DNA of 64,000 nt from Pseudisothecium myosuroides. Lineage: Eukaryota; Streptophyta; Bryopsida; Hypnales; Lembophyllaceae. The stretch lies in assembly GCA_951799445.1 (NCBI GenBank), contig OX637293.1:21638001-21702000 (forward strand), given 5' to 3'. The notes under the pieces are model-generated. The model was not told the origin of the DNA. It searched no databases and was given only the letters and a program-made list of their open reading frames with translations. This document shows positions 1,742-64,000 of this stretch, piece after piece; position 1 is the stretch's first letter; each line of letters opens with the position of its first letter. Position numbers and translations under genes: made by a program.

Positions 1742-1971
1742 TTAACCCTTAAACACCGAGGGGGTGACCCTCAAAGTCATCCTTTTCTATTATCGTGTGA
1801 ATCATTAGCCTCCAAAATTGCAAAAGTACTCATTGCAAGTCAAACTACTGTAGAAGATTTTCCATTTCCACAACAAATTTCAAGGATGAATAGTTGCACT
1901 TCTGTCCTATACAATTTGATTCCCTGTCATCCATCAAACACAAAATGTTTGCCGCGGCATTCAAGGGTTAA
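1742..1971. mobile_element. Short TTAA-flanked MITE (about 230 bp)
   Basis: The left end reads TTAACCCTTAAACACCG. The reverse complement of the right end reads TTAACCCTTGAATGCCG. The two form imperfect terminal inverted repeats bounded by TTAA. The interior (about 1780-1945) matches 13600-13800, including similar stretches around the CAAGGATGAA motif, so the two are copies of one small family. It shares the TTAA plus CCC start with the larger elements in the window. No coding capacity; the short + strand frame through it resembles no protein I know. Confidence 0.7.
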
Positions 1972-2639
1972 TGGAAGAGGCGTGTGGCAATTATTGTTTT
2001 ATATTTAAAACTCCAAATTAAGGTTAAACCAAGGCATCACAAGTATCGTCTCTAATAACTCCGGAATTAAAAATTAAGATATACTACTTGCTAGTCACGA
2101 TATTCACACAAGGTGAATCTTGCTTTCGTCAAAAAATTCCGTCCTTTTTGTAGCTCCCTAGGGCTCCAGAATTAAACCGGCTTATCAAAGCCTGGCAGCC
2201 TTCTGGAGAGTCAAAAGTTTCTCTAATGCATGGTTAGTGGCATAAGGTGGAAAAGGTTTTCAGCTTGCAGGTTAATAAGAAAAGGTTAGCACACCATAAA
2301 TTAACCAAGGACCACCTTTGGATGCTAAATGAATTAGGAGAGTCCAAAACCATGAGTAACTTAGTGGGAGTTAACCATTGTGGTAATAAAATGGAGTTAA
2401 GCACTTGGCTGGTGGTAATGGTTCATTTGAGACGATAGACTCCATTCCATTTCTTCTATGGTAAACTCTTGTTATAAAACTCCCTTGAGTGAAAGGGAAA
2501 CAATGACTAGCTAGTTTGCCTTGTGCCTTTCATGAATCTAGAGGTTGTTAAAAGTATGTTTTTATCATAGAATAGTAAATGGAAATTGAGATAGAATTCC
2601 TAGATTGTACTCAAGTAGTGAAGTTTCATTGTGTAAAAG
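1972..2639. other. Intergenic, nothing recognised
   Basis: Only a 63-codon frame (2247-2438) without domain features lies here. I see no repeat ends. Confidence 0.4.
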
Positions 2640-3480
2640 AAAACACTTGTATGTTTTTTGGATAAATTCTTAATGAATTTTTCATTTATTATCCTAGCAT
2701 TTGTGAGTTTACCATTTTGTGTGTTGTTTGTCACCACATTTTATTCTAAAAAGATTTGGACAAGGGGCATATTGTAGCTTATTTTTATTTATAAAAACTT
2801 CAATAAAAGGTTTCCAGCCACTACATATAGGAGTGCCATAGAAATAGGATCCACTTATTTATAAACAATAGAATTATGGTTCTTCCTTGCCAATAGTAGT
2901 CATTGGCTATAAATTTGGTGAAGATTGGTTATAGCCTTATATAGTTTTAGAATTGTAATTAAAAAATAAAATGATTCTAAATTTTTTTGAAGAAAAATTT
3001 GAAATTTTTTCTATTCAAGAATGTGTCCTTATTCTTTAATGCCTATAATCAATCTTGTCTTTCAAACTTCCATCCATTCCATCCATTATTTCTTATAAAA
3101 AAATTGAAATGTTTTCAAAGCACTTAATTTCAGTGTCATTGAATATCAAAAAAATTCTTAAAAAAAATTTCAATAAAAAATATTTATGATTCAAAATTCA
3201 TTTTAGATAGGAATTCCACATAGAATTGTCTTAGTGATTACAAGCAAAACCTAAAAACTTACTATGCTCTAATCTATAATGGATGTGGAGTTAATTACTA
3301 TGACAAACATTTGGTAATAAATGGATCCATTTATAATAATGTAGATGTGGAAACTTATATTTAAGGAACCATTAGAGCAAAATTGGGGTCTCAACATGTT
3401 TAGTACTTTTGGCTTGCAAATTAATTGTTTGAATTTTATAAAAGAAAAATTCCATTTCATGGATCACTATTGCATGTTTC
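2640..3480 (+). repeat. Segmental duplication, copy 1
   Basis: This stretch matches 3755-6440 in order: the CTTAATGAATTTTTC block (2667 and 3780), the block around TATCCTAG, the ATATAGGAGTGCCATAG block (2825 and 3930), the CCATCCATTCCATCC block (3070 and 6120) and the GATGTGGAGTTAAT block (3281 and 6347). Copy 1 is compact. Copy 2 is stretched by insertions, so copy 1 supplies the empty state for insertions in copy 2. No gene is evident in either. Confidence 0.65.
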
Positions 3481-3949
3481 CATCAAAATTGTGGCCTAAT
3501 GGGATGTTGGTGGTACAAGTCGAGTTGGCAACAATGCACTCGTGCCCAGCCTATGTGACAGTGGCCATGTCTCTATGTCATGTAGGAACCCAAGGTCCGT
3601 ATTAGTACCTTGTCACTTTAAGCAATGATTATGTCAAATTGAATAGTCTATTTGGGAGTCTATTTCACCTAACAGGATGATTGTTGCCATTTGGGAAGTC
3701 TTGTCATATGGTACTGCCATTGCCAACAATGTTTTCCTTGTTCTAATGAAAACACTCAAGTGTGTTTTTGAAAAAAATCCTTAATGAATTTTTCTTTTAT
3801 TATCCTAGTTCTTGTGAATTCACCATTTTGTATATTGTTAGTTACTACATTTTGTTCTAAAAATTTCCAAGGGACTTATTGTAGTTTATTTTTATAAATA
3901 AAATGCTTAAATAAAAACTTATGAGCTAATATATATAGGAGTTCCATAG

Positions 3950-5054
3950 ATGGGCAATTTCATTAACCCCTAAGGAACCAAGGCCTTTTTTTATGCCAAA
4001 AAACACTCAAAACTGCCATTTCTAAAGCAAATAGTAAACAATTTTGAAAATGGTTTTTTTTCTACACATCTAACTACAGGATCTTATACTTAACTAGTAT
4101 GAAAATGTGTGGAAAAAATTTCAGAATTTTTTACCACATAAAGAGGAAAAAACAAGTTTTTCAGCACATTGCGGGACTAGATGTTTTGACTTTGAACATT
4201 TTTAAGTTAAAATTTTTGCACTACATAATTTTGAGCTTTAAATCTTTATAGTGGAGAATTGAGTTGAGAGTCTCGGAAAAAAAACTAAAAAAAAATTAAT
4301 TTTTATTCTTTAAAAAATTGTTCTTTAAAAAATTGTTAAGTAGAAATAGGTACGAGATAGAAGGAAAATCTAAAATATTGATATCTTTTAGGTGGAATTA
4401 AAATGCATTGTTCCTAGTGGTGAGATTGTTCTAGCAAGCAAACTAAACCATGTGAAACTTTTTTTCTTGAAAAATTGTAAAAATTGCATTCAAAAATGAA
4501 TCCTGCAAGTTATTTTTTCAAGAAGATGCTCTAATTGCTTGAAAAACAAGATTGTCCATAACCTTCTCATAACAAATTCAAATAGAATGAATCAAAACTT
4601 CCCATATAGACAAAAATATAATCTACAAGACAAAAAAATTAAAAATTAAACTTTTTGAAATTTTTATTTGTTACCCCCTCTCCCCTGTTTTGAGCTTATT
4701 TGGGTATAACTTTTGTTCCCGGGCACTAGTTAAAAAAAAGATTAAATTCCCACAAAGCTAATCAGATTATCTATCTCCAAAAAAAAGTTCAAAAAATCAA
4801 GACAAAATTTCAGCCTGTAGATACCTGCCCAAAATCCCATTTGTCCCTCGAAGGGACAATGGTCCTTTAGGGGTTAAAATGACAATATTCTTATAAAATG
4901 GCCTGAAAATAGTTCAGAACGCCCGTTCTGAATCTATACCTGTCCTACATGGTTCAGAACACCCATTCTAAAATCTATACCTATTCTAGATGGTGAAAAT
5001 GGCACATCGTCAAAGTGGCACACGTAATACCACCATTTTAATGAAATTGCCCAT
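3950..5054. mobile_element. MITE (about 194 bp) split by a TTAA element in its left terminal repeat
   Basis: The outer ends read ATGGGCAATTTCATTAA at left and TTAATGAAATTGCCCAT at right. The related segment near 2838 reads CCATAGAAAT without an insert, while here CATAG occurs on both sides (3945-3949, 5055-5059), suggesting a target duplication of 3 to 5 bp (ATA or CATAG, depending on where the repeat is taken to start). Removing 3967-4877 restores a perfect 21-bp terminal inverted repeat. The superfamily is unclear; a PIF/Harbinger-like MITE is possible. Confidence 0.75.
3963..4877 (+). mobile_element. TTAA element, subfamily A, copy 1
   Basis: Non-autonomous element of about 907 bp bounded by TTAA on each side (3963-3966, 4874-4877). 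Its ends are complementary: CCCCTAAGGAACCAAGG at left and GGTCCTTTAGGGG at right. It aligns end to end with 12644-13583, 33221-34146 and 37112-38053. Shared landmarks are a TGCCAAAAAAC block near the left end, CAGCACATT about 200 bp in, CATAACTTTTGTTCCCGGG near the right end, and a CGAAGGGACAA block before the right repeat. No open frame of useful length. It sits inside another MITE. Confidence 0.85.
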
Positions 5055-6799: not shown

Positions 6800-6807
6800 A
6801 AGATAAA

Positions 6808-8260: not shown

Positions 8261-9357
8261 AAGTTTCCAATCCTAGCATTTACCTCATAATACCGAAAGG
8301 AAAAAATTGAGTTCAACATCTTCTAATTGCTATTGAATTTTCAAGTTTAATACCCCATGGGCCATGCTAGAACACAATGAACAAAAAGTATATTCTACAT
8401 TGGTCTTGTGGATCTCACAAATAGTAAAGAATTTGAATTTGAAAGTTTTTAAATGTGTTCTACAAAAAAGTGAGATTAACCTCTGAAAGTCTATGCATCC
8501 TAAAAGTGGATGCGCCATGTTCAAATTTGATTGTAACTTTCAAATCATCCATTTCCTATTTTTATTTTAACTTTAAAAATGGAATCCAATAAATTATCTA
8601 TCTACTCCATTTCAAAACTTTAAAAAATTCCAAAACTTTAGTTAGTTATTGCAATGAAAGCTCCATGTGTTAGAATCCATGTAACACAATTATATTGTTT
8701 GTTTTTCATTTGTATTTTTTTTTTTTAAATAATTTTTAAGTTTAAATTATAAAATATTGTTTCTCACTCTAATCCTTCATTTTTGGTCAAGATCCCAAAT
8801 TATTCTTATATTTATATATATATATATTCTATTTGATATAATTTTATGCACTTATTATAATTTACAAAACTATAATAATTTCATAAAAAATCCTTAAAAA
8901 TTCAACATCTTTAGAAATTAAAGGTGTCCATTTGCACATTAAAACTACCAAAATTTTATTAATTAACTATTAAAAAACTCTAAATTTCCATTGATGATAA
9001 TGATTTGATTTCAAGGTCATCACCAAAGGTGTTTTAGATGTAAATAGGAAAAATATTACCTAAAAATTTTCTATACTATTATACGTGAAGGTCATATTCA
9101 GCACTCAGGTGCTGAAATTGAATTTCCACGTCAGATTCTTAGGGATTCACATCACCTCACACCATTTACAAGATGACATGTAGCACTTATTAACAAAAAT
9201 GATTCAATGTATGCTGAATTTAACCTTCATTTAGGCCCAGTATTTTACATGACTACTTTTGAGGAATTTCAAATTAATTGAAATTTTTTTTGTTATATTA
9301 ACCAAAATATTTTCACTTATTGATTTAAAATGATTATAGCTTATTACAAAACTAATA
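8261..9357. other. AT-rich intergenic with a TA microsatellite
   Basis: No gene recognised. A short run of alternating T and A lies near 8811-8829. The region is otherwise low-complexity AT with dense stops. Confidence 0.4.
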
Positions 9358-9986
9358 CTCCCTCCGTCTTGAAATAAATTCGGGGTTTCCTAAAAATGGC
9401 TAGATTAATGCGTGAGCTATTCCTATTTTCAAGGTATTGCAGAGATATTATAGCTTCTACTAAACCCCACTTGTTCGCCATTTGTTTCAAATAAATAAAT
9501 AAATATATAAATTCCACTAGATGTGAAAGAATGGAAGTCAAAAGTGAAGTGGTTCATGTTGAATATAAGCGGCAAACGTGAATTTGTTTTTCCCTTTTTG
9601 GAACTACTCCAGTGGTATTAATTTTGATCATTCTTCGAGCAATGTTGGTGCAATGACATTCATTGATGTCCTCTGTATTCAATAATGACAATGTCTTGTG
9701 ATTCAACTTCAAGAAATTCTCAACAAGAGATTTGTTAGTAGCAGTCTCTATACAATTTTGGGTTGAATTCTTCGCCTTCACTGTTGGCTAGACGTTGCAT
9801 TTCGATTCCCTTTGCAAGGATCAAATTGCTATATAGTCTTTGGAGTGTGACATCTACAGTTTCTTTTGCTTCAAGGTGTCCGAACTAGCTTTAGTTGTTG
9901 TTCATCAAGTTGTAGAGAGCCAATTTCAAATTTAATTTGAGACAAGTATAATTGGAAACCCTGGATTTATTTCGAGACTGAGGGAG
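9358..9986. mobile_element. Stowaway/mariner-like element (629 bp)
   Basis: The left end CTCCCTCCGTCTTGAAATAA and the right end (reverse complement CTCCCTCAGTCTCGAAATAA) form an inverted repeat extending about 35 bp. TA flanks both sides (9356-9357, 9987-9988). A CTCCCTCCGT start with TA duplication is the hallmark of plant Stowaway MITEs. At over 600 bp it is long for the class. The 75-codon minus frame inside (9554-9781) does not look like a mariner transposase. Confidence 0.85.
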
Positions 9987-10431
9987 TAGGTGATTGAGAT
10001 TGACCAAGTCATATCCAGTTTTTTTGGATACCGGTATATATTGGGTCTAATAATAGATGGCAATTGACACGTCACACACACACGGAATCTCAATCACATC
10101 CAAACATCAGAGTTGTATGAAATCAGCACTCTGGATGGGGCGACTTCACATTCCCACAGGTTCCTGACTCAGCTCAAAACCCACCAAACATACCGTGACA
10201 CGTGGACATAACTTAACTAGAACTCCACTATGATCCACCAAAGTGCAATTGTAAGTACTTGAGATTTTTATGGATGGAATTGTGGACAAAAAATCCATCT
10301 TCATTGAGGTACAACTACTTATTCCATTTGCTTCCAATTTGTATCAAATAAGTGTCACTAATATGCCCTCAAACCGTTCACTTTGAATGGCTCCTACCTT
10401 ACAAATGTTGATTTATGATTGTCCACTAATA

Positions 10432-10841: not shown

Positions 10842-12643
10842 TAAGCTTTCAGTGAATGGTTTTGGATCTTCCTCAAGGCACTTGGCACTTCAAACATGCA
10901 CCTATTGAACACTTTCAAATTTCTTCCAGTCTTGACTTTGAAAGTTTAAAAAAATACACACTCCAAAATACTTATTTTTATTTTGAATATTAATGCTTTC
11001 CATTTGTTTACAGGGCAAAAATAACACCTACTTGTGATTACGACTCCATCTATACAAACCAACTTAAATGAACGCTAATAGACGTTTTTACTTTATTCAG
11101 TTCTTCATCAAATTTGAAAATTAACTACATATGTTGAAAGCTATGAAAGGGAGATAAAAGGTGTTGTATTTTGAGGCGTTTTAAACAAAGAGAAGTAGTA
11201 GTAAAAAAATTAATTAAAAAAAAATGTTTTAAATCCACCACCAAATTACTACCAATTTGACACTAATCTATTTTCAATCTTCAAGACGGCTGCTTGATTT
11301 GTGGCACTTTGAGGTTCTGAAGCACAGTCTAAAGACAAAACAATGTCAATAGATGTTGATGAGCATTGTACATTCTTTGGGAATTTTAGGGGCAAAATTG
11401 TGCTTGGTGGGGGATAATTTCTAAAGCACTAGGGTACAGAAAACATTAAACATTGCAAAAGCCATCTGGTGGCCTTGTGGTCCTTTAGGGTTTAAAGTGA
11501 TGGTAGAGCAATTGTCTAGCCTCAACTTTTAATACATTTTATCCTCTTTCGCAACTTTTAGAATATGTAGTTAGTTAAAAATTTGGTCAAGAATTAATTT
11601 TGTGGGAAAGGCTCAAGTAAGGAATATAATGGACTTTTTGGGCCTACAATTCTACACAATTATTAGTAACAATAGACTAAAAATGAATGTATCCACGGTC
11701 CTAGGTGATTTCATATAATTTATTTGCCTAAAAAAATAATAGAAAAAAAGGCAAAAAAATTGAATCCTAGTACAATTATAAGGAAAAAAACACTTTGAAA
11801 AACGATAATTTTGAAGTATGACTACTTAGAGGGACATGTCTAAAAAGCCACCACTTGAGTTTATTCAATTAGTGTATCTCATAGTAGTAACATTAAATCG
11901 CACTAATTTGAGAATTATGCAAAATTGCAAAGTATACTAATATCAATGAAGGTTCATAATATCTTAGATAAAATCAAAATAGTATGATCTATACTACTTT
12001 CATATTGTCGTAAATAGTATGATTTTCATTCAACTTTCATTTGCATTCATGTTATTTTCTTTTGAAATTCATACAAATACTCACAGTAATTAGTACCACA
12101 TTCATCCAAAATCATCTCTAGTCATATAAAGAGGTCTAACACTTATTGAAATAGCTTGAGTTACTACCCAAAAATGATATTGCTTTTAGAAAAAAAATTC
12201 AACTTATTTTGCAACATCCTTTCCAACATATCATATTCAACATTCTTTTCAACAGAGTGCATAAAAGAGTGTAAAACCAATACTTAGCTTGTCCAAGAAA
12301 CAACAAAAATTACTATTTGCATCAACAGAAACTAGGTTTCAATAAAAAAAATCATTTTGATACAAAATATTAAAAAATGATTTTTTTTTTCAAATAGTTT
12401 TTAACAATTTAGAATCAAAACCCCATCAAAAAAATGTTGAAAACTACTCCCTTTTTTTTGGTAGTGCATGCACATGTTAAATTCAATTACGGTGCCCCAC
12501 AATAACAACATTAACTAGCACTAATTTAAAAACTATGCACATTTGTGTGGTGCACTAAAATAGAAATTTATAACATTTAAATTAAAATCAATAATAATGT
12601 GGTCAAGTCTTTCCTCATAATATCTCTCATAGTATAATTGTCA
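10842..12643. other. AT-rich intergenic, no gene seen
   Basis: Dense stops in all frames. A solitary sequence resembling the right end of the TTAA elements (GGTCCTTTAGGGTTTAA, about 11481-11497) occurs, but I could not find a partner left end. Nothing else is recognised. Confidence 0.4.
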
Positions 12644-13583
12644 TTAACCCATAAAGGACCAAGGCCTTTTTTCTACCAAAAAACATTGAAAACTGCCATT
12701 TCTATAGCAAAGAGTACAAAAAAATTTACATTGTTTGTTTTTCAAATCTAACTGTAGGATCTTACACCTAACTAGTATAAAAAAGTGTGGAAAAATTTCA
12801 AAATTTTTGACCGCACAAATTGCAAGATATTTGCATTTAAAGTAGAAAAAACAAGTTATTCAGCACATTACAGGACTAGATTTTTTGACTTTGAACATTT
12901 TTAACTTAAAATTTTTGCACTACAGAGTTTTGAGCTTTATATATTTATAGTGGAAAATTGAGTTAAGAGTCTAGGGGGGAAAATAAAATTCAAAAAAACT
13001 TAATTTTCATTCTTAAAAAAATTGTTAAGTAGAAGTGGGTACAAGATAGAAGGAAAGTCTAAAATATTAATATCTTTTAGATGGAATTAAAATGAACTAA
13101 TTCCAATGGTGAGATTGTTCTAGCAAGTAAATTAGACCATGCAAAAAATTAAAATTTTAAAATTTTAAAAATTGCATTCAGAAATGAATCCTACAAGTTA
13201 TTTTTTTCAAGAAGATGCTTTAACTACCCAAAAAACATGAATGTCCATAACTTTCTCATAACAAATCCAAATGAAATGAATAAAAGCTTTCCAGATAGAC
13301 AAAACTATAATCTATGAGAGAGAGAAAAAATAAAAAAATAAAAAATCAAATTTTTGCAATTTTTTTTTGCTCCCGGCCTACCCTTTGTCCCTTGTTTTGA
13401 GCTTATTTGGTCATAACTTTTGTTCCCGGGTACCGATTGTGAAAAAATTATATTCCCACAAAGTTTATGAATTTTTCTATCTTCAAAAAAAGTTTTAAAA
13501 AATCAAGACAAAATTTCAGCCCGTAGGTACCTGCCCGAAATCCCATTTGTCCTCCGAAGGGACAACGGTCCTTTAGGGATTAA
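12644..13583 (+). mobile_element. TTAA element, subfamily A, copy 2
   Basis: TTAACCCATAAAGGACCAAGG at left (12644) and GGTCCTTTAGGGATTAA at right (to 13583). It aligns throughout with copies 1, 5 and 6. One base of each terminal repeat has changed (CCCAT, GGGAT), so it is older or less intact. Its right TTAA (13580-13583) is also the left TTAA of the next element. Confidence 0.8.
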
Positions 13584-22319: not shown

Positions 22320-23263
22320 TTAACCCCTAAAGGCCCAGCATGCATTTTTCGGTAGTATAGAAATTTTGGGCAGGTACGTGTGGCTAGAGATTTCCATATT
22401 TTGGGCTGAAATTTTAATAGAAGGTGGGGACAAAGAATATCTTTTATATGCACTAAATTTCATGACATTTGGAAATAGGAGTCAAAAGTTATGGCCTAAT
22501 ATGTTACTTTTTTGTGTAACTGGGCAATTCAGGCAAATAAAAAAAAATCACTTTTTTTGAAAACAAAAATTTGAAATTGATTATCTAGAGTTATATATAC
22601 ATGGAAAGCTCTGAATCATTCCATTTCAACCAATGAGTCAAAAGTTATGAGGAGTTTTAGTTTGCGGGCAGTTATGGCGAGAGTTATGGATTCTCTACTC
22701 TAAAATAAACTTTGAAGCCGTTTATTTCACTCAATTTTCAATATTTTTTGTAAAAAATAAAATCATAAGATGTAAATTTTTTATAAAAACATTACAAACA
22801 TTGGGATTGACATTTTTCAATTCCATAATTAAATTCTTAACAATTTTGTATTTTGAATCATTATCTATTTCTTTCTACTTACTCTTTTTTCCCTATATGT
22901 TGTACAATTCCAAATGACTTGAAATTTTCAAGCATGTAAAAAACTTGTTTAGAAAAAATAATCCAAAGAAGCACCACCATTTTGATCATTATTTCATAGA
23001 AAAGTGAGCTTGTGAAGCGCTGCTGCCTGATTTTTTGCAAGACCAAAAAAAGGATTTTTGTCAATTCAAACACTAATATCTTGCAATTCTCATGGTGGAA
23101 ATTTCTGAAATGTTTTCTACATCTTTTCAAACTAGTGTAATACAAGATCCTATGGTTATATTTGTCAAAAAAAGTTTTTTTTCAAAAATTTGTTACTTGT
23201 ATTAAAAATGGCAGTTTTTGAGCGATTTCAGGAATAACATAGTCATGGAACTTTAGGGGTTAA
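22320..23263 (-). mobile_element. TTAA element, subfamily A, copy 3 (diverged)
   Basis: It starts TTAACCCCTAAAGGCCCAGC and ends GAACTTTAGGGGTTAA. It runs opposite to copies 1, 2, 5 and 6: the block that leads with GGCAGGTACGTG corresponds to the right part of those copies, and GGCAGTTTTTGAGCG near the right corresponds to their left part. The interior is more diverged than in the other A copies. Confidence 0.75.
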
Positions 23264-25250: not shown

Positions 25251-26088
25251 TTAACCACCAAAGCTCTTTCATGTTTGGAGGTCCAAATTGCTTCAAAATT
25301 CTCTTTCCCAAAGCAGGACTAAAATCTTCATCTATATTTATTTTTTTACAAATTCAATTGTAGGATCCTATGGTTAGCTTGTTCAAGTACATTGTTCCAA
25401 GAATTTAAAGTGAATATTCCCACTAATTGCAAGTTCAATGTGCCTAAATTTCAAAATGTAAGCTTTTCAAGCTTTTCTTAAAGGTGAAGTTTTGTCTTTT
25501 AGAAAAAGCATGTATGATAACTTGTGCATTTTAGTCAATATATTGGAAAATGAATTGAAATGTATATAAAAATGTAACCAAAAAAACTTTCATATTCATC
25601 TTTAAAAAGATTATAAAATGGAAGGTGATATTGAATAAAAGAAAAAACTAAATTGCTAATAAATTTTATAAAAATTAAGAAGTGTTAATACCAATGGTGA
25701 GAATGATCCAGTATACAATCAGGATTCTTTACTTTTGTTTTTATTTGAAGATTTTCAAAATTGAGTTCAAAAGATGACTTTATATGCTTTTTCCTTCATT
25801 GCCTACAAAACAAAACTCCTCATAATTGTCACTTCATCATTTGTAATCGATTGATTCAAATGTTTTTGAGTAGGTATCACTCTATACAATTGAATAAAAT
25901 AATTTTTATTTCTTTTTTTTCAAATTCCCAATTCGACATTGAAATTTTGAAAAAAAGTTATAACTTTTACAATATTTATAAAAATGACATGAAACAAAGC
26001 TTCACATGTAGATTAGGACAATTAGCATCCATCCTACAAAATTCATGCAAAAATCCCAAAGCTATTTCCTTGATCCTTTAGGGGTTAA
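25251..26088 (+). mobile_element. TTAA element, subfamily B, copy 1
   Basis: Left TTAACCACCAAAGCTCTTTC (25251), right GATCCTTTAGGGGTTAA (to 26088). It aligns in the same direction with 30000-30911: CTTTCATGTTT at left, CAAGTACATTGT, GTGCCTAAA, CAATGGTGAGAATG and CATGCAAAAAT near the right. The left repeat has decayed. The 106-codon frame 25761-26081 is low-complexity and shares no motif with a transposase. Confidence 0.75.
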
Positions 26089-26154: not shown

Positions 26155-27403
26155 AACTTTGAATGCAATTTTAAAAAAAGTTGGTGGGTGTTCAATATTA
26201 CAAGAAAGGATTAGAAACCATAACACAAAAGAATGTATTCAAAATCTTCAGCTGTTGAGGATAGTTTATCAGTTGTTGAGGATAGTTTAACTGATAAAAT
26301 AAATAGGTACAATTTTGATAATTCTCCACAATAATTGCATAGAAAAGTGTAGTTCCACTGTAAGGTAAGGTAACAGGTTCAGAAATCGCCCACCTAATAG
26401 CTGAAACTGAATTTTGGGGAGGTGAAACGTCTCGAGATATTTTTCAGTAAATTTTGCTTGAAAGACAAGAGGAATTGGCATCTAACCCAAGTCGTTTCAT
26501 ATTTTTTGGTGCTTTCTAGAATTAGTTATGAATTTTTGAAGTTGAAGTGGCATTGAGCTCTAAAATCGCCCACCCCCTAAAATGTACACTATTTGTACAT
26601 TGCTAAAGGCTATGAAATAGTTACATGTGCACATTTGAATAGGGTGGGCGATTTTAGAGCTTGTGCGATTTCAAAGCCTGTTACCTTAGATGCTTTAGTG
26701 ACCATTGTGTGTCAACTTCAAAAATTCATAACTAATACCATGAAGCTCCAAAAAAATATGAAACAACCATGGTTAGATGCCAATGGGTTATGTCTTTGAA
26801 GGAAAATTTTCAAGAAGTCTAACCTCCCCAAAGTCAATTTTAGCTTTTAAATGGATGCTTTATATACCTCCTACCTCATTGCTTCATCCTATTAATATTG
26901 ATTGAGCAAAATTGGTGTCACCGACCTCCAAAAATGTAAAATCATGACAATATAGTAATATTTTGACCTACACAAAATTAAGAATAGTGTGACTTTGGTA
27001 AATTGATATGGTTTGCAGTAATTGGATAAATTAGTGTGGTGAGATCATGTCTTGTTCCAACTAAGAAATTCACCCAATTTCACGTAAATTTTTCACTTAA
27101 TGACTGATTCCATCCAAGTTGAGTGTGGCTAGACTGAGCCATGATGTGTATTAGGTTTGTCCTATTGGTGAGTGTATAAAATCAATGTCACCTACAAAAC
27201 AAAATTAGTGTCACTATAAAATTTCATTTTTATGAAAATTAGTACAATACAATACTATAAGTATAGAAAACATTACTGAAACTTTGGTAAATTAGTTTGA
27301 ATGCAATCTAAAAAAAAACTTTGAATGCAAAACTTTGAATGCAATCTAAAAAAAAGTTGGTGGGCGTTTAATATTACAAGAAAGGGTTAGAAACCATAAC
27401 ACA
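26155..27403 (+). repeat. 1.1-kb repeat (26226-27296) flanked by 72-bp direct repeats
   Basis: 26226-27296 matches 40831-41919 inside HMA-C intron 3 at high identity over the full length. Here the unit has related 72-bp sequences on either side (26155-26226 and 27331-27403), both beginning AACTTTGAATGCAAT and ending CATAACACA. Within it is an AGGTAGG-type MITE-like segment with ends TAAGGTAAGGTAACAGG (26365) and GCCTGTTACCTTA (about 26690), and a downstream CTCCTACC end near 26868. No coding content. Confidence 0.7.
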
Positions 27404-29999: not shown

Positions 30000-30911
30000 T
30001 TAACCCCTAAAATTCTTTCATGTTTAGAGGCCCAAAACTACTTCAAAATACTCTTCCTCAAAGCAAGGTCAAAATCTTCATCAAAATTTATTTTTTAACA
30101 AATCCAATTGTAGTATTTTTTGCTTAACTTGTTCAAGTACATTGTCCCAAAATTTTAGAGAGAATGTCCCCACCGATTGCTAGTTCAATGTGCCTAAACA
30201 TCAAAATGTAGGATTTTCTAGCTCTTTCAAAAGGTGAAGTTTTGTCTTTCAACATCTTTAGAAATGAACTCATATGTCCTATGACATGCATTTTAGTCAA
30301 TATGTTGTAAAATGGGTTGAAAATATATATAAAAAAATTTAACCAAAAAAAATATCAAATTCATTTTAAGAAAAATTATAAAGTGGAAGGTGTTACTAAA
30401 TGAAAGATAAAACTAATACGGAATATGCTAATAATTTTTAGAAGAATTTAATTTTTTTTAGTTCCAATGGTGAGAATGTTTTAGTAAAAAATTAATATCC
30501 CTGATATTTATATTTATTTAAAAAAATTCAAAATTGAGAACAAAATGACTTTACATGTTTTTTCTACCTTCATTGCCCGCAAAGTAAAACTCCTCATAAC
30601 TTTTATCGCACTGTTCATTATTGAATGGTTCAAATGTTTTTGAGTAGATATCAATCTATAAAATCTCCAAAAAATAAATAATTTTTTTTAGAATATATAT
30701 TTTTTTGCCTGGTTTGACATTGAAATCAAAAAAATCTTTCTAACTTTTACATTATTTATTGGAATGACATGAAACAAAGCTTTACATATAGATTATGATG
30801 AGTAGCATCCATCATAAAAATTCATGCAAAAATTCTAAATTCTAAATTCAATAGAGCCTATCCAAATTCTCAAAAAGTCCAAAGTGGGCTCCTTGGTCCT
30901 TTAGGGGTTAA
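30000..30911 (+). mobile_element. TTAA element, subfamily B, copy 2
   Basis: Left TTAACCCCTAAAATTCTTTC, right GGTCCTTTAGGGGTTAA. This is the best preserved subfamily B copy. Inner ends read TTTAGAGGCCCAAAAC at left and AAGTGGGCTCCTTGGTCC at right, unlike subfamily A, so only about the outer 10 bp and TTAA are common to the two. No coding content. Confidence 0.82.
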
Positions 30912-31641: not shown

Positions 31642-32814
31642 TTAACCCCTAAAGAACCGTTGTCCCTTTGGGGGACAAATGAGATTTGGGTAGACATGCT
31701 GAATTTTTGTCCTGATTTTTTTAAACTTTTTTTGAAGATAGAAAAACTGATAAGCTTTGAGGGAATATAATGTTTTTTTCAATTGGTGCCCAGGAACAAA
31801 AGTTATGCCCAAATAAGCTCAAAATATAGAAGAGGGGGCAACAAGTTTTTTTTAATTTTTTTTTTTTTTTTTAAATTTCTTCTTCTTCTCATAGATTATA
31901 TTTTTGTCTATCTGGAAAGCTTTGATTCATTCCATTTGGATTTGTTATAAGAAAGTTATGAACAATCTTATTTTCTGAGCACTCATAACATCTTCCTGAA
32001 AAAAATAACTTGTAGGATTCATTTCTGAATGCAATTTTTACAATTTTAAATTCAAAAAATTCCATGTGGTTTAGTTTTCTTTCTTGAACAATCTCACCAT
32101 TGGGATTAGTGCATTTTGATTCCATACAAAAGATATTAGTATTTTAGATTCTCCTTCTCTCTCATACCTACTTCTACTTAACAATCTTTTTAATAATGAA
32201 AATTAAGTTTTATTGAATTTTTTTGCTAGACTTTCAACTCAATTCTCTACTACAAAGATTTAAAGCTCAAAACTCTGGAGTGCAAAATTTTAAAGTTAAA
32301 ATTGTTCAAAGTCAAAAAATCTAGTCCCACAATGGAGGGCTGCTATTATGTGAGCATAGGATTGTGAGTCTATGATCCTAGAATACTATACACCTACGTT
32401 ATAGGTGTATAACCTATAGAAACCGTCTATAATTATAGGATATATATGTTACAAATACCCATATTATAGGTGTTTATGATACGTACACCTTCTATAGTGT
32501 GTGGTATCTATATTATAGGTACCTATATTGTATGCTCAATGCTCACAAGCTCACATTCTTGGGCTCACATACTAGCACCGTTGTCCCACAATGTGCTAAA
32601 AAACTTGTTTTTTTCACTTTAAAGCAAATATCTTGCAATTTGTGTGGTAAAAAATTCTGAAATTTTTTCCACACATTTTTATACTATTAAGGTGTAAGAT
32701 CATACGGTTAGATGTGCAAAAAAAATATTTTTCAATTTTTTTTACTCTTTGCTATAGAAATGGCAGTTTTGAGTGTTTTTTTGCATAGAAAGGCCTCGAG
32801 GCTTTAGCGGGAAA
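31642..32814 (-). mobile_element. TTAA element, subfamily A, copy 4, with nested MITE
   Basis: The left end TTAACCCCTAAAGAACCGTTG and the following TGTCCCTTTGGGGGACAA block correspond to the right end of copies 1, 2, 5 and 6, so this copy is inverted. The far end is damaged (GCTTTAGCGGGAAAT, no TTAA). A 248-bp MITE splits it at 32335-32582. Without that insert it has the usual length of about 920 bp. Confidence 0.8.
32335..32582. mobile_element. 248-bp MITE nested in a TTAA element
   Basis: Near-identical to 27887-28133 in the same orientation. It is flanked by GTCCCACAATG on both sides (32324-32334, 32583-32593), an 11-bp match. Other TTAA copies have the uninterrupted form of this site (GTCCCGCAATGTGCTG in reverse complement at about 4163), which confirms the junctions. 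Confidence 0.88.
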
Positions 32815-33220: not shown

Positions 33221-34146
33221 TTAACCCCTAAAGGCCCAAGGCATTTTCTGGCTCCGAAACCACTGAAAACTACCATTTCTGCTGCGATTACTTCCTAAAC
33301 CAAAAAAAATAAATTCTTAGAATCTAACCGTAGGATCTTGTCCTTCACTTGTCTTAGATCATGTGGTAAGAATTTCATGAAGTTTGACCGTACGGATTGG
33401 AAGATATTAGCGTTTGAAGTTGGAAAAAGAAGTTTTTTTGAACTCTGGATTGCAATTTCAGATGACTTTGACGGCCATTTGTGGATTTTTTTTGCACTAC
33501 ACACCATAAATTTAAAAAATTTTATGTTGAACATTCAAGTTGAGAGTCGGGGAAAAAAATTTCAGAATGTCAAAACTTGATTTTCACATATAAAAAAATT
33601 GCTAAGTAGAAGTAGGTCCAAAATTGAACAAAACACTAAATCTTCAATAGCTCTTAGATGAAATTAAAAAACCATAATTCCAATGGTGGGATTGTTCTTG
33701 CAAACAAACTTAACCTTTTAAAAAAAAAATTGAAAAAATTTGAAAACTGCATTCAAAAATGAATTTTATAAGTTGTTTTTTGAAGAAGACGCTTAGATTG
33801 CCCGAAAAACAAGATTGTCCATAACTTTCTCATTCTGAGTCCAAATAGAGTGAATCAAAGCTTCAAATATAGACAAAAACATGATCTTTTAGGAAAAAAA
33901 ATTAAAAATAAATAAATTCAATTTTTAAAAGTTTTTTTTTTTGCCCGGCGAACTGCTTTTTTGACTTCGGGCGGCATAACTTTTTTTCCCAGGCACCGAT
34001 TGAAAAAAAATTATATTTTTGGAAAGCTAATGTGATTTCCTATCTTCAAAAAAAGTTTCAAAAAATCAGGTCTAAATTTCAGGTCGCACAAGCCTGCCTG
34101 AAATCCCAAGTGTCCCCCGAGGGGACTTTGGGCCTTTAGGGGTTAA
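33221..34146 (+). mobile_element. TTAA element, subfamily A, copy 5
   Basis: Left TTAACCCCTAAAGGCCCAAGG, right GGGCCTTTAGGGGTTAA, perfectly complementary for the outer 17 bp. The inner landmarks of the subfamily are present, with extra differences (for example CCGTAGGATCTTG instead of the other copies' ATCTTAC). No open frame beyond about 80 codons. Confidence 0.88.
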
Positions 34147-35279: not shown

Positions 35280-35550
35280 AGGTGGATACCCTCCAAACCA
35301 CCACTTTTTGCTTTTGTGCCAAGTTACGATTATTAGATTGGTCAAATTTTCACATTTTTTTGTTGGCACTTGACAGGAGGCTCCAACGTACCAAAGAATG
35401 TGACATTTGAATATCACATGCAAAAGTTATGAAGGAACAAAGTTTGGTTCTAAAATAGATCTTCCACATAGGTACATAATTGATTTTAGAGATGTACATA
35501 GAGTGAAGATGGCAGTTTAGGGTCAGTGGCGCATTTGGGGATGCCCACCT
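35280..35550. mobile_element. AGGTRGGTAC-family MITE, copy 3 (inverted)
   Basis: Left TAAGGTGGATACCC, right GGGGATGCCCACCTTA. The interior is the reverse of copies 1 and 2 (GGTTCTAAAATAGATCTTCC, CCACATAGGTACATAATTGA). The right TA border coincides with the TTAA at 35550-35553 that opens the next TTAA element. Confidence 0.75.
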
Positions 35551-36349
35551 TAACCCTTAACTGCCTCAGCGACCATATATGGTCGAGCTGAAATTTCAGG
35601 CTCATTTTGGTATGGGCAGTTAAATTCGTTTGACCGTTTTAAATTTTTTTTCGGGCAGTTTTTAGGGTTAACTATTGAAAACTTTCATTTTTCACTGCAA
35701 AAGGTAAACATTTGATTTTTGAGAGGTCTTCAAAGCCATATATGTCCCAAAGTGGAAGAGTAAAATTTCCTAATTTTACTTCATTTCCCAACTTTTGCCA
35801 ATTTCACTTGATTTGAGATCTAAAAACTTGTACTTATCCATTTGCTTTGAAAATGGTCCCAATGGAAAGAGTAAAGTGTTTTCATGATTTTCACCATTGA
35901 AAATTTAAACATGCAAGTGTTGATTTGGAGTTATTTGCGATTTATACTTATAAAAAAAATTGCATTTCACCAATTGCAAGGTGGATTGTGTAATAAGTTT
36001 GATAGCTTTTCATGTGAAATTAAGTTTTTTGAAAGTGCATTTTAGTGTGCTAACATTATTTGTAGTCATTCATGTCACTTCCCATCTCAAAAAACTTTTA
36101 TATGCAAATTTCTAAAACATGGCAGCATACTAAAAATAGAAAGCATACATTTCTCTTGTTATAATCTCACAACTCCTATGCAATTTCGCACTCAAAATTG
36201 GTATGCATACTAATAATCAAGCTCTTCAAACATCTATACGGTTAGATTTTGAAAAAAATACAATTTACTTCATTGGGGTTAACTATAAGCCCATGCTCTT
36301 TTTTCATAGTCAAAACACTCTTGAAAAGGCTTGGGCATTTAGGGGTTAA
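35550..36349 (-). mobile_element. TTAA element, third subfamily
   Basis: Left TTAACCCTTAACTGCCTCAG, right GGGCATTTAGGGGTTAA. The outer repeat resembles that of subfamilies A and B, but the interior matches neither. The left part reads ACCATATATGGTCGAGCTG. It abuts the MITE at 35280-35550. No coding content. Confidence 0.7.
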
Positions 36350-36856: not shown

Positions 36857-38082
36857 AGGTAGGAGGTCCAGAAATGGAGCATCTAAGCGCTGAAACTGAA
36901 TTTTGGGGAGGTGAAACATCTTGAAATGTTTTTCAGTAAATTTTCCTTGAAAGACAAGTGGAATTGGAATCTAACCCAAGTCGTTTCATGTTTTTTGGAC
37001 CTTTGTGGAATTAGTTACAAATTTTGTGGTCATCAAAATGGACCACCTCCTGAAATGTGCATAGGTGGTACATTGAAAAAAGCAAAATGTACCTCTGAGT
37101 CATGTTCCATTTTAACCCCTAAAGGCCCAAGGTCTTTTTTCTGCCAAAAAACTATGAAAACTGCCATTTCTATAGCAAAAAGTTAAAAAAAATTAAAATT
37201 GTTTTTTTTTCCACACCTAACCGTAGGATCTTACACCTAATTGGTATGAGAATGTGTGGAAAAAATTTCAGAATTTTTGACCGCACAGATTGCAAGATAT
37301 CTGCGTTTAAAGTGGAAAAAACAAGTTTTTCAGCACATTGTGAGACCAGATTTTTTGACTTTAAACATTTTTAACTTAAAATTTTTGCACTACAACGTTT
37401 TGAGCTTTAAATCTTTATAGTGGAGAATTGAGTTGAGAGTCTAGGATAAAAAAAAAATTCAAAAAAACTTAATTATCATTCTTAAAAAAATTGTTAAGTA
37501 GAAGTAGGTACAAGATAGAAGGAAAATCTAAAATATTCATATATTTTAGATGGAATTAAAATGCACTAATCCCAATGATGAAATTGTTCTAGCAAGTAAA
37601 CTAAACCATTCCAAAAAAAAAAAATTGAAAAATTACAAAAAATGCATTCCGAAATGAATCCTACAAGTTATTTTTTTCAAGAAGATGCTCTAACTACCCG
37701 AAAAACAAGAATGTCCATAACTTCCTCATAACAAATCCAAATGAAATGAATCAAAGCTTTCCAGATAGACAAAAATATAATCTATGAGAAAAAAAATATT
37801 AAAAAAAAAATTCAAATTTTTGTCCATTTTTTTTTTGCTGCCCGGGCTGCCCCCCGTCCCTTGTTTTCAGCTTATTTGGCCATAACTTTTTTTTCCGGGC
37901 ACCGATTGAGAAAAAAATTATATTCCCACAAAGCTTATCAATTTTTCTATCTCTAAAAAAAAATTCAAAAAATCAGAACACAATTTCAGCCCGTAGGTAC
38001 CTGCCCAAAAACGCATTTGTCCCCCGAAGGGACAACGGGCTTTTAGGGGTTAATGCCCGCTCCGTTTTACAGCCTCCTACTG
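36857..38082. mobile_element. AGGTAGGAGG-family MITE, copy 2, interrupted by a TTAA element
   Basis: Left TAAGGTAGGAGGTCCAGAAA (TA 36855-36856), right CAGCCTCCTACTGTA (TA 38083-38084). The left and right parts match 10432-10841 and 45922-46248. The TTAA element at 37112-38053 sits at the position where copy 1 has an uninterrupted TTAA (CATTCTTAATGCCCGCT). Its neighbour 38083-38270 begins exactly at the right TA border. Confidence 0.8.
37112..38053 (+). mobile_element. TTAA element, subfamily A, copy 6 (well preserved)
   Basis: Left TTAACCCCTAAAGGCCCAAGG, right GGGCTTTTAGGGGTTAA. It has all subfamily A landmarks including CAGCACATTGTG and CCCCCGAAGGGACAACGG. The host MITE provides the pre-insertion site, showing that exactly TTAA was duplicated. 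No transposase coding. Confidence 0.9.
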
Positions 38083-50060: not shown

Positions 50061-50062
50061 TA

Positions 50063-51890: not shown

Positions 51891-51891
51891 G

Positions 51892-53401: not shown

Positions 53402-53418
53402 ATGTGAAGCTTGTGAAT

Positions 53419-54786
53419 ATGGATGAATCAGACGTTGGAGCTTCACTTGCACTAGTGGAAGTTGTAAATGCATTAGTTGGTACAATGATACAATTGGCTA
53501 GCCAAGGGATGTTTGAGAGAAGTCAAAGAATGATTCCAAAAGTATCAGGTTCGAGGCATTCAAAGCAAAAAAAAACAGAAGGAGAAGAAATGTCAATTCT
53601 TCACTCGACTATGGAATGCAATGCATTATTTCAACAAGTTTTTGTTGAAAAATGTGGCAAATTTTTTTTTGGATAAGAGGATGGTCTACACTACATCAAA
53701 CCATGTTCAATTCATTGGTGGGATCAATACTCAACTTTGGTGATGCATAATGATCCAGAGTGATTTCGACAATTTTTTCGTTTATCGGTGCCAACTTTTT
53801 ATTATCTTTGCAACTTGGTTCATGAAGAATTGCATCACAATCCACCGCCGGGTTTGATCAATATCATTGGAAGATTGATGGATGTTCCTAAACAAACTGC
53901 TATTGCGTTACAAAGACTAGGGACTGGAGATACTCATGTTTCTATCAGTGAACTTTTGGGCATAATGGATTCAACAAGTGTGGTAGTCTATCAACGACTC
54001 ATTGTTGCTTTAATAAAGGTAGTCTTACCTTTGCATTTAAATTGGCCAATAGAAGAAAGACTATCTAAGGTCAAATTTAGTTTCAAAAACCTACACGGCA
54101 TTCCACAATGTTGTGGTGCTCTCGATTGCTCACATCCGATTTGACCTACCATAAAATACCAGATCAAGTGATTGGTATGATTGTGACTATAACTACTCAA
54201 CAATGATGCAGGCAATTGTAGACCATGAGGCTCGGTTTATAGATCATGTGTTTGTTGGGTTTTTTGGATCCATACATGATTCTCAAATTCTATTGATGTC
54301 AAATTACTTTAAAGAAGTGATTGCAGGAAGATGATTGAATGGACAATCGAGATTCAAGGTGTCGATGTTTGTGAACTCATCATAAGTGATGCAGACTATG
54401 TTGGAGATAGGAACTTGTTGGTACCTTGGCCTGGAATACAACTTCTTCAATTATATAAGGATTACAACTTCAAGCATGCATCGACACGTATGGTAATAGA
54501 ATGTGTTTTGGGAATTCTTAAAGAAATGTGGAGGATTCTCAAAAATCCTATTACAAATCCTGATCTAAAAAAGAATCTAAGCTTGATAGTAGCATGTTAT
54601 TTACTTCATAATATCATCATTGATAAGAATGATATTATTGATGAGTCAATTGTGTTATACAAACATTATGATTTTGGATATACACAACGAATAGTGCAAA
54701 GTCCATCACAAAATGATGGTAAACAATTGCAAATGGAAATTACTAGGCACTTGTACCTTTTAGAAGGAATGCGCTTGAATGAATAA
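53419..54786 (+). pseudogene. PIF/Harbinger DDE transposase (DDE_Tnp_4 type), broken
   Basis: The family cuts and pastes DNA through a DDE catalytic triad. Visible in order: an N-terminal part from MDESDVGASLALVEVVNAL (53419) to a stop at 53674-53676; HEELHHNPPPGLINIIGR and QTAIALQRLGTG (helix-turn-helix region); FSFKNLHGIPQCCGALDCSH, whose LDC aspartate is the first catalytic residue; a frameshifted stretch with DHEARFIDHVFVGFFGSIHD; VDVCELIISDADY with the second Asp; and HASTRMVIECVLGILKEMWR with the Glu; then LIVACYLLHNIIID. Several stops and frameshifts interrupt it (near 53674, 53762, 54142, 54332). All three catalytic residues are still recognisable. Confidence 0.85.
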
Positions 54787-54821
54787 AATGTTGTGACTTA
54801 TTCTACATTGTTCACCATTAT

Positions 54822-55697
54822 TTAATTTCTGGGATCCAAAGAGCTCACTTTGGACTTTTTGAGTACTTGGGCAAGCTTTTCTGATTTTATAATTTAAAAT
54901 TATTACATGAAGTTTTAATAATGAATATACTCATCATAATATACATGTGTAGCTTCATTTCACGTCATTCCAAAAAATATTGCAAGAATTAGGAAGTCTT
55001 TTTTAATTTCAATGTCAAACCGCGCAACAAAAAATAAATTCTAAAAAATATAAATTATTTTTTGAAAATTTTATAGATCGGTTAGTATTAAAAAAGATTT
55101 GAACAATTTAATTCCAAATAGTGAAGTAAAAGTTATAAGGACTTTTATTTTGTGATAGAAAAATTATATAAAATCGTCTTTTGCTCTCAATTTAAAAAAT
55201 TTGTTCATAAAAATGAAAATAAAAGATTCCATTTATTTATTAGAACATTTTCACCATTGGAATTAACAATTCTAAAATTGTTCCAAAAGTTATTTGCACA
55301 TTAGTTTTATTTTTCATTTAGTAACACCTTGCAATTCACAATTTTTTTTAATGATTCTATTGACTTTTTAGGTTAAATTTTTCAGATGTATGAAGCTTAT
55401 TGTATTTCAAATGAGATTTTTTAACAATTTTTTCAAAAATTATGTATAATTTCACTATGATACATTTGAATTTTTAAAATTACTCTATGAAGCTTATTGC
55501 ATTTGATATGAGTTCTTGTAACAATTTTTTCCAAAATTCTGTATAATCAGTACAAACTAATCTGAAAAGTTATGAACTTATACAAGAGAGGTGATATCAT
55601 CACCAAAAATAAAAATAATTAATTTCATTGACATTCAATTGCACAATGACAATGAACCACAAAGATTGATTTTTACCATATGTCTATCTAGGGTTAA
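54822..55697 (-). mobile_element. TTAA element, subfamily B, copy 3 (inverted, decayed)
   Basis: Starts TTAATTTCTGGGATCCAAAG and GAGCTCACTTTGGAC, the reverse of the subfamily B right end (GTCCAAAGTGGGCTCC near 30880). It continues with the subfamily landmarks in reverse and ends near TAGGGTTAA (55689-55697). Both terminal repeats are decayed. It begins 36 bp after the Harbinger transposase stop. Confidence 0.6.
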
Positions 55698-61859: not shown

Positions 61860-62515
61860 TTAACCCTTGAGCACCTCAACGCCCCAAATCTAGACTCTTC
61901 AAATTAAAAAAGGGCCATATGATGTCAGATGGGATCGTACTGCTTTGAAAAGTGTACAACAGCTTATAATACTCGTACATTGATTACGAGTGAATGGAGG
62001 ACAACAATTGAATGCGTCATACGAGAGGTTTGGATGTCGGATTGGATGAAAATTCTTTGTGGAGTCACTTTGGTGAAGAAAGAGTGACTCTGCTCTCGTT
62101 CTGTAGGTCCGCTTCCAATGGCCATCACCTGCAGTTTGGACCCTCCGTGCATGTCTCGTAGGCAATTGAAAATTCAGAGATTTTGTGTGGGGCCAGAGCA
62201 TGACTGACCCTCACTCTTGCCAAAAAGTTAGGGCTAGATTTATTGTGGTTGCTTTCTAATGCTTCCCCGAAGTGCCAGAGATCCCACATTTTTGGCAAAC
62301 TTACGATTTTCAGTGCGCCTTTGACTATTATAATCTGCAAATCGATACGGTGAAATGGTCCGAAACTTTGCCCACAGCACCTGCCCTAAAGCTTTTCTTG
62401 ATTGCAACGGTTAGGTCCTGTATAATTCGTATTGAAGTCGCGATGCCATTCCGCTTGGCAAGAGGTCCTCTTATTGTGAATTTCACACGATTTTCCTTAG
62501 GCGCTCAGGGATTAA
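61860..62515. mobile_element. TTAA element with CCCTTGAGC ends (656 bp)
   Basis: Left TTAACCCTTGAGCACCTCAA, right reverse complement TTAATCCCTGAGCGCCTAAG. These are imperfect inverted repeats bounded by TTAA. The interior is richer in G and C than its neighbours and matches no other TTAA copy here. The 100-codon minus frame (61899-62201) has no known domain. Its right TTAA (62512-62515) is also the left border of the next element. Confidence 0.6.
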
Positions 62516-63244
62516 GCCCTAGACATGCTTCAATATACTTTTTTTCAATGTAAGGCTAAAAATTTCCATTAATTTTTTTTATCAACTATAGAACTTTTCA
62601 AGTCAACATGTTCAAGACTTCAAGTCCAACTTTCTAATTTTTCTTTAGTGCAAACCACTACTGATTGCATGATCTGAATGCCTAAACTTCAAAAATAAGT
62701 TTTTTCCAACCTTTTTTTGGAGTAAAGTTTTGTCTTTAAAAACTTTCAAGAAAAATGTGTGAGTTTCCTAATTTGTGCATTTTAGACAACACACCGACAA
62801 ATGAGTTGAAAAATGTTGAAAAAAATTATCCAAAAGAGTCATATACATTGAATTAAGGAAAATAGAAGGAAGTACACAATAAAAGAAAAAACACAAATCC
62901 CTAATAAAATTAACATGAAATTGAGAAATATCAATCCAAATGGTGAGAATGTCCTAATGAATAATATGTATTCTATGATTTTACATAACTTGAAAATTGA
63001 GTTTTAAATTCATGTTAAAATTGCATTTAGAACATTACGCTTATTTTTACCTTCATAACTTTTATCTCATTAATAGAAAAAACATGATATAAAGCTTTCT
63101 CTCTCTATATTAATCTATTCAATCATTAAAGTTATTCAATTCAAAATCTCTCTCTCTAAAATTTAGATTTTGAGGTAAAAATATGTGGCAAAATAGGCCC
63201 ATAATGTCATCTTCAATACTGTCAACGTTTAGAGCTTTTAGGGG
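62512..63244 (+). mobile_element. TTAA element, subfamily B, copy 4 (decayed)
   Basis: Left TTAAGCCCTAGACATGCTTC, right AGAGCTTTTAGGGGCC. The interior follows subfamily B (ACTGATTGCATGATC, GAATGCCTAAACTTC, AATGGTGAGAATGTCC). Its right end has lost the TTAA. It abuts the element at 61860-62515. Confidence 0.6.
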
Positions 63245-63410
63245 CCAAGGTAGTGGTTACTAATTTTGTTATTTCGAGCATTTATGAGTACCACTATAAA
63301 AATTTGTAGTTTTCAATACAAGTAACAATTCATGCTATAGCAACACTTTAGGGGTATTAGCTAGAACTTAATTTTGGAAAGAGAGATGAAAACGAGACTT
63401 TAGATTCCAA

Positions 63411-64000
63411 TTAACCTCTAAAGGACCATTGGCCCTTCGGGAGACAAATTGGACTTGAGGCAAGTACCAACGGTCTCAATTTTGGTCACAATTTTTTGAA
63501 ATTTCTTTTAAAGACTGAAAAATTGATTAGCTTTGTGGGAATATTATTTTTTTTCAATTGGTGCCCAGGAACAAAAATTATGTCCAAACAACAAAACAAG
63601 GGAGACCGGGCAGCAAAACAAATTCCAAAAATTTGAATTAAATTTTTTTTCTCATAGATTATATTTTTGTCTACATGGAGAGCTTTTATTCATTTCATTT
63701 GAATAAGTGATGTGAAAATTATGAACAATCTTGTTTTTTGGGCAATCTAGGCATCTTTTGGAAAAAATAACATGTAAGATTCATTTTTGAATGCAATTTT
63801 TACAATCTTTTTAAAAAAAAGTTCCACATGGTTTAGTTTACTTTCTAGAAAAATCTCACCATTAGGATTAGTGTGTTTTAATTCCATCTTAGAGATATTA
63901 ATAATTTAGATTTTCCTTGTATCTCGTGCCTACTTCTATTCAACAAATTTTTTAAGAATGAAAATTAAGTTTTTTTGGAATGTTTTTTTTCCTAGATTCT
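63411..64000 (-). mobile_element. TTAA element, subfamily A, copy 7, cut by the window edge
   Basis: Left TTAACCTCTAAAGGACCATTG followed by CCCTTCGGGAGACAA, the reverse of the subfamily A right end, then TTGGTGCCCAGGAACAAAA. The distal end would lie about 350 bp beyond the window. Confidence 0.8.

What the first reader, a model, noticed from the sequence alone, without database searches (positions are those of the whole stretch)
1742..64000. A multi-subfamily group of TTAA-targeting MITEs with CCC-starting ends in a plant genome
At least twelve elements in this window begin TTAACCC and end GGGTTAA (1742, 3963, 12644, 13580, 22320, 25251, 30000, 31642, 33221, 35550, 37112, 61860; also decayed copies at 54822, 62512 and 63411). 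They fall into several subfamilies with unrelated interiors but a common end motif close to CCCCTAAAGGNCC. TTAA target plus CCC-starting ends is the signature of piggyBac elements; Kolobok and Sola3 also use TTAA. As far as I know such elements are little described in land plants. No matching transposase is in the window, so the source is unknown.
Basis: partly seen in the sequence, partly recalled or inferred. Interest (0 to 1): 0.8.

Follow-up and report, generated by a model that had tools for sequence, protein, structure and literature searches.

The report
piggyBac transposons and MITEs in moss
The repeated elements in this stretch are short, gene-less relatives of piggyBac jumping genes, a kind best known from animals; full-length relatives with open enzyme genes lie elsewhere in the same moss genome, and some of them seem to have jumped recently.

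Summary
Seven window elements have TTAA at both ends; with four decayed, cut or reversed copies they form three related families (A, B, C) of about 0.84-0.94 kb, not unrelated ones. Genome-wide, the end motif CCCCTAAAGGNCC occurs 19,348 times against 17 for its reversed control; in 278 kb, 43 of 48 unselected copies directly follow TTAA. The genome gives 116 scored piggyBac transposase matches (PF13843, best E 1.7e-83), with open frames up to 1,091 aa. A 5.6-kb piggyBac carries family A's sequence at both ends: 75% over 312 bp and 90% over 101 bp to window 33221-34146. Family A is thus a non-autonomous piggyBac derivative; B and C probably are too. Five copies of another piggyBac differ by 0-3 substitutions over 4.1 kb on five chromosomes: recent transposition. 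The host is a moss by its DPH2 gene. Six transposases of this genome fall in a clade (100/100) with unnamed proteins, apart from the animal rows. My searches listed no paper on native piggyBac in mosses. Corrections: 13580 is the right end of 12644; 1742, 35550 and 61860 are unproven; a decayed Harbinger ORF is in the window.

The parts
3963..4877 (+). family A MITE, 915 bp, TTAA both ends
   Evidence: blastn 79.9% over its length to 37112-38053; ends 70%/79% over 100 bp to the C5 piggyBac
   Evidence: 88.0% to 37112-38053; ends 66%/77% to the C5 piggyBac
31642..32814 (-). family A copy, reversed, with about 250 bp of unmatched sequence inside; far end has lost TTAA
   Evidence: 80.0% and 84.8% stretches to 37112-38053; ends
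33221..34146 (+). family A MITE, 926 bp, TTAA both ends; the copy closest to the piggyBac partner
   Evidence: 75% over 312 bp (left end) and 90% over 101 bp (right end) to the two ends of the piggyBac at C5:31905448-31911073
37112..38053 (+). family A MITE, 942 bp, TTAA both ends
63411..64000 (-). family A copy, reversed, runs off the window
   Evidence: 78.2% over 620 bp to 37112-38053
22320..23263 (-). family C MITE, 944 bp, TTAA both ends; one end like A
   Evidence: full-length relatives L016 88.8%, L017 83.7%, L022 81.4%
25251..26088 (+). family B MITE, 838 bp, TTAA both ends (left end TTAACCA)
   Evidence: 75.5% over 850 bp to 30000-30911
30000..30911 (+). family B MITE, 912 bp, TTAA both ends
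54822..55382 (-). family B fragment with a decayed end
   Evidence: 54836-55382 is 75.1% to 30000-30911
62512..63248 (+). decayed family B copy
   Evidence: 62660-62951 is 69.6% to 25251-26088; ends
35550..36349 (.). candidate TTAA element, 800 bp, unproven
   Evidence: TTAACCC...GGGTTAA, no blastn relative in the window; ends 36-54% to the partners
1742..1971 (.). candidate TTAA element, 230 bp, unproven
   Evidence: TTAACCC...GGGTTAA, no relative in the window; ends near the shuffled control

Best explanation
The elements are non-autonomous piggyBac transposons (MITEs) of a moss. Full-length piggyBac elements of about 5.1-5.6 kb elsewhere in the genome encode a DDD transposase. That enzyme would recognise ends of the form CCCCTNAANGNCC plus subterminal sequence, cut at TTAA, insert into TTAA, and mobilise short derivatives that kept about 0.1-0.3 kb of each end and lost the gene. 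Shown here: the transposase genes, the TTAA flanks, the ends shared between MITE family A and full-length piggyBacs, and near-identical dispersed copies of another piggyBac. Inferred: that such a transposase moves the MITEs, that families B and C have the same or a similar helper, and that any copy still moves today. The items at 1742, 35550 and 61860 are not covered by the claim.
For: PF13843: 116 scored matches of 899 candidates, best E 1.7e-83 over profile 4-349 of 349, 0 of 14 control genomes ring. Complete elements with TTAACCC at both ends in 4 of 5 fully fetched loci. Of 20 further piggyBacs whose 3' side was read, 2 end in family A sequence, and both carry the other family A end on the 5' side: for C5:31905448-31911073, 75% over 312 bp (E 7e-54) and 90% over 101 bp (E 5e-34) to window 33221-34146. 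Its 758-aa open frame carries PF13843 (E 5e-81) and aligns with solved piggyBac 6X67 and piggyBat 9C0F. 43 of 48 unselected end motifs follow TTAA. The motif is 19,348 against 17 for its reversed control genome-wide. A joined-flank test shows one TTAA at an unoccupied paralogous site.
Against: The partner's ends match family A well but B and C only at 46-60% over 100 bp, so their own helper was not found. The middle of the MITE (about 33532-34046) has no match in the stretches of the partner that I held. 12 of 20 piggyBac 3' stretches showed no exact TTAACCC. One of five full loci (L041) showed one end only. MITEs are GC-poor (0.27-0.33) while four of the full piggyBacs are 0.48-0.51. In two of three A copies inspected, the empty site is one base off TTAA. 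The genome-wide count with TTAA required did not complete.
Confidence: 0.94

Rival explanations
1. The MITEs belong to PIF/Harbinger (3-bp TWA target), the TTAA being a wider preference; the decayed DDE_Tnp_4 ORF at 54313-54786 would be a trace of the helper.
For: The ORF is in the window (E 4e-10 to DDE_Tnp_4), and its stop is about 36 bp from the decayed end of a family B copy at 54822.
Against: The ORF lies beside the B copy, not inside it. Family A ends are found on piggyBac elements. The flank is TTAA in 43 of 48 cases. Harbinger elements elsewhere in the genome were not searched.
Confidence: 0.02
2. They are Kolobok or Sola3 derivatives, superfamilies that also use TTAA (recalled).
For: TTAA target only.
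Against: The partner with matching ends is piggyBac. Kolobok and Sola transposases were not searched here.
Confidence: 0.02
3. The shared ends at the two piggyBac loci are chance: a family A MITE inserted on each side of an unrelated piggyBac.
For: MITE ends are very common (19,348 exact motifs), so neighbours are expected.
Against: At both loci the ends lie at 1.51-1.59 kb 3' and 2.64-2.89 kb 5' of the domain, within or beside the ranges of the four complete piggyBacs (1.35-1.59 and 2.55-2.93 kb; from coordinates), both face inward, and each side carries a different end of family A in the same polarity. Two loci agree. The sequence between the pieces was not read without gaps.
Confidence: 0.02

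Closest known systems
piggyBac of Trichoplusia ni (solved transposase 6X67/6X68) and piggyBat (9C0F)
   Same: DDE_Tnp_1_7 transposase aligned over the catalytic core, TTAA target, ends starting CCC
   Different: Moss elements are 5.1-5.6 kb with open frames up to 1,091 aa, against a piggyBac of about 2.47 kb (PMC10813416, passage); the rows of this genome lie in a clade apart from the animal rows
piggyBac MITEs of animals, such as the coral group of PMC2872659 (search listing only)
   Same: TTAA, short elements without a gene; piggyBac named in that listing
   Different: Host is a plant; ends and interiors not compared
'PiggyBac' MITEs and repeats listed for plants (PMC10004981, PMC6890710, PMC8319324, PMC10794571; passages)
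   Same: Name the superfamily in plants; PMC10004981 groups MITEs by TIR and TSD
   Different: The passages seen give names or repeat-table rows (1,230 pieces in a fern, 1 in a grass), no intact element with a matching MITE family; here both are in hand

Membership tests
piggyBac superfamily (full-length elements of this genome) | DDE_Tnp_1_7 transposase | tested here: met
   116 scored matches, best E 1.7e-83; separate scans of six frames
piggyBac superfamily (full-length elements of this genome) | Catalytic DDD triad | tested here: met
   VDE, MDN and VDVADQ of the 758-aa frame align with the 6X67 positions; that these are the catalytic residues is recalled
piggyBac superfamily (full-length elements of this genome) | TTAA at both ends, tips starting CCC | tested here: met
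   4 of 5 full loci; C5 and C2 partners
piggyBac superfamily (full-length elements of this genome) | C-terminal cysteine-rich domain | tested here: inconclusive
   Cys/His-rich tail seen in the frame; no Pfam zinc-finger match for it
piggyBac-derived MITE (family A) | Both ends homologous to a full-length piggyBac | tested here: met
piggyBac-derived MITE (families B and C) | Both ends homologous to a full-length piggyBac | tested here: inconclusive
   46-60% over 100 bp to the A partner against a shuffled maximum of 0.36-0.40 for those rows' left ends; blocks shared with A
piggyBac-derived MITE | TTAA duplication, single TTAA in the empty site | tested here: met
   43 of 48 motifs behind TTAA; one clean empty site in L023 for a related MITE at L010:5810-6556; two window A copies one base off; two other tests not clean
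piggyBac-derived MITE | Mobilised by piggyBac transposase | not testable with these tools
   needs an excision assay
PIF/Harbinger MITE | 3-bp TWA target duplication | tested here: not met
   four-base TTAA in front of the motif in 43 of 48
Kolobok / Sola3 | Kolobok or Sola transposase with these ends | not tested
   not searched; genome search unavailable

The most novel reading that the evidence does not exclude
Mosses carry their own deep clade of piggyBac transposons, parts of which are still active today and have seeded a heavy MITE load, several percent of this genome. That would be a plant-native piggyBac system with intact transposase genes and thousands of natural substrates.
Probability: 0.6. 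Interest if true: 0.75.

Novelty: new member of a known kind. Interest (0 to 1): 0.62.

Why it matters
piggyBac is the best-known TTAA transposon and a standard tool, first in animals and then, in its insect form, for marker excision in rice (PMC5505980, passage). What its own life in land plants looks like is barely described in what I could search: a survey of MITEs in 207 plant genomes sorts them into five superfamilies without it (PMC12550479, passages). A moss with almost identical piggyBac copies, open transposase frames and over nineteen thousand exact MITE-type ends allows direct tests: does a plant piggyBac excise cleanly, how does the plant silence it, and did mosses inherit or acquire it? 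It also warns that plant repeat libraries may misfile such elements.

Tried and rejected
Harbinger as the source, because of the ORF at 54313-54786: rejected, since it lies beside the B fragment and not inside it.

Bare 7-mer counting: too weak on its own.

My first genome pattern dropped one C and so found a minor form (92 + 88, control 1 + 0); the full inner motif was counted. The count with TTAA in front could not be had, as the genome search was busy at every later try; the local 43 of 48 stands in.

Full-locus piggyBacs against the window and loci gave one 52-bp terminal match to an end at L011 and none to the window. The partner was found only by reading further 3' ends.

Flanks of 37112-38053 and of L012:4709-5634 as empty-site tests: too diverged to be clean.

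PMC10619864 was opened for 'piggybac'; the passage shown is the word 'piggybacking', the second hit was not shown.

A first count of differences among five piggyBac copies missed one substitution behind a shift in a G run; an alignment gives 0-3.

Full report
What was checked. The window is C7:21638001-21702000 of a 388-Mb genome in 222 contigs. TTAACCC and GGGTTAA occur 24 times, against a mean of 10.2 and a maximum of 17 in 50 first-order Markov simulations: suggestive only. The longer end motif is far stronger. CCCCTAAAGGNCC occurs 9,696 + 9,652 times in the genome, and the pattern read backwards 7 + 10 times. In the 278 kb that I examined (window, 19 loci picked for a related end, five piggyBac loci), 48 hits with at most one substitution remained after dropping 19 hits of the form by which the loci had been picked. 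Of these 48, 43 follow TTAA directly; TTAA starts at 0.7% of positions there. The base before TTAA varies.

Window anatomy. Family A: 3963-4877, 12644-13583, 33221-34146, 37112-38053, and reversed copies at 31642-32814 and 63411-64000. Family B: 25251-26088, 30000-30911 and decayed copies at 54822 and 62512. Family C: 22320-23263, reversed. Seven of these eleven have TTAA at both ends. A, B and C share blocks, so they are relatives. The sites 1742, 35550 and 61860 have an end motif but no relatives or support here. A, B and C cover 8,447 of 64,000 bases of the window and 8,518 of 121,619 bases of flank in the 19 loci, centre left out; those loci were not picked at random, so the share of the genome is a rough figure.

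The source. PF13843, the piggyBac transposase family, gives 116 scored matches from 899 candidates in this genome, the best at E 1.7e-83, and rings in none of 14 control genomes. Open frames reach 1,091 aa. Five loci were fetched in full: four show an element with TTAACCC at both ends, of 5,414, 5,184, 5,076 and 5,632 bp, and the fifth (L041) one end. Ends differ between lineages (TTAACCCCTCAGGGCC, TTAACCCCTAAATGTCC, TTAACCCTGAAACGC) around a common form. Among solved structures the two strong matches are piggyBac (6X67/6X68) and piggyBat (9C0F), and the three aspartates that I recall as catalytic align.

The link between MITE and source. I read a 421-bp stretch at the expected 3' end of 20 further piggyBacs out of the 116. 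Eight of 20 had an exact TTAACCC; 12 had none. Two of 20 (C5:31907042 and C2:14049920) end in family A sequence. I fetched the 5' side of these two, and both carry the other end of family A. For the C5 element the 3' match to window 33221-33531 is 75% over 312 bp (E 7e-54), and the 5' match to 34047-34147 is 90% over 101 bp (E 5e-34). For the C2 element it is 79% over 191 bp and 86% over 97 bp. The C5 element spans 31905448-31911073, 5,626 bp, TTAA at both limits, with a 758-aa open frame carrying PF13843. Its start codon and possible introns were not worked out, and the C2 frame has a stop. Over 100-bp ends, the four forward A copies score 66-77% and 75-90% against the C5 element, and ten shuffles of each left end at most 40%; C and B score 46-60%; 1742 and 35550 36-50%.

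Activity. Five copies of one piggyBac, on C2, C3, C4, C9 and C10, differ by 0-3 substitutions over 4,116 bp, apart from the length of a run of G. Six others, on C1, C4, C5, C8, C9 and C10, share one score and a 1,091-aa frame without stops; one of them was fetched. Recent movement is very likely; present movement is inferred. The MITEs are older: A copies in the window are 71-88% alike.

Empty site. A 747-bp MITE with TTAACCCCTAAAGGACC ends at L010:5810-6556 sits inside a family A copy: its joined flanks run through 15 stretches of A copies. I looked at the junction in three. In L023 it is a single TTAA; in two window copies it is one base off. Two other joined-flank tests were not clean.

Host and kin. 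A DPH2 exon at L015 is 58% identical to Physcomitrium patens, 48% to Sphagnum fallax and 44% or less to flowering plants at 90% or more coverage; nine unnamed sequences are closer still (57-78%). The host is therefore taken to be a moss; the species is unknown. A tree of six transposases of this genome with 38 others, picked by hand from the 111 listed, puts all six in one clade (100/100) with 15 of the 23 unnamed rows, apart from all 14 animal rows and the oomycete row; the other eight unnamed rows fall outside. The six do not form one lineage within the clade. Named relatives are at most 31% identical. No named plant protein was listed in either search, although Physcomitrium and Sphagnum proteins are in that database: weak evidence, as sensitivity is limited.

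Literature. Searches (titles and abstract starts seen) listed no paper on native piggyBac in mosses; only openly licensed PubMed Central papers are held. Against any claim that plants are empty of it: one abstract says piggyBac has been isolated from insects, fungi and plants (PMC10813416); a review names it among seven angiosperm MITE superfamilies (PMC10004981); another lists it among plant superfamilies (PMC10794571); repeat tables list 1,230 pieces in a fern and one in a grass, both 0.00% (PMC6890710, PMC8319324). A survey of 207 plant genomes, four of them bryophytes, uses five superfamilies without piggyBac and gives average MITE shares of 0.7-2.2% (PMC12550479). A Physcomitrium TE paper describes mariner elements and has no hit for TTAA (PMC7466625). 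Of all these I saw passages only.

Verdict. New here are the matching full-length, recently mobile piggyBac lineages behind the MITEs and the great number of MITE ends in a moss.

Noticed in passing
window 54313-54786 (+), remains from about 53400: Decayed PIF/Harbinger (DDE_Tnp_4) transposase ORF whose stop lies about 36 bp from the decayed end of a family B copy.
   Followed up: partly
window 9356-9390 and 9954-9988: Inverted repeat with TACTCCCTCCGT ends, like Stowaway MITEs (likeness recalled).
   Followed up: no
window 30965-31436: 71% alike over 477 bp to a TTAA-ended candidate element at L040:6762-7713 with TTAACCCCTAAATTTTGG: a possible further TTAA family beside B 30000-30911.
   Followed up: no
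window 11459-11495: End motif TTAAACCCTAAAGGACC, 92% over 37 bp to an end at L010:584-1186; the rest of that element is not in the window.
   Followed up: partly
L010:4038-5129: An element with a family A left part and a family C-like right end: a hybrid, which may tell how the families arose.
   Followed up: no
L010:5810-6556: 747-bp MITE with similar sequence at both ends (both halves match window 22320-22678), nested in a family A copy.
   Followed up: partly
window 26449-26809 and 41059-41430: Two copies of an inverted repeat with arms of about 59 bp that resemble each other; not of the TTAA families.
   Followed up: no
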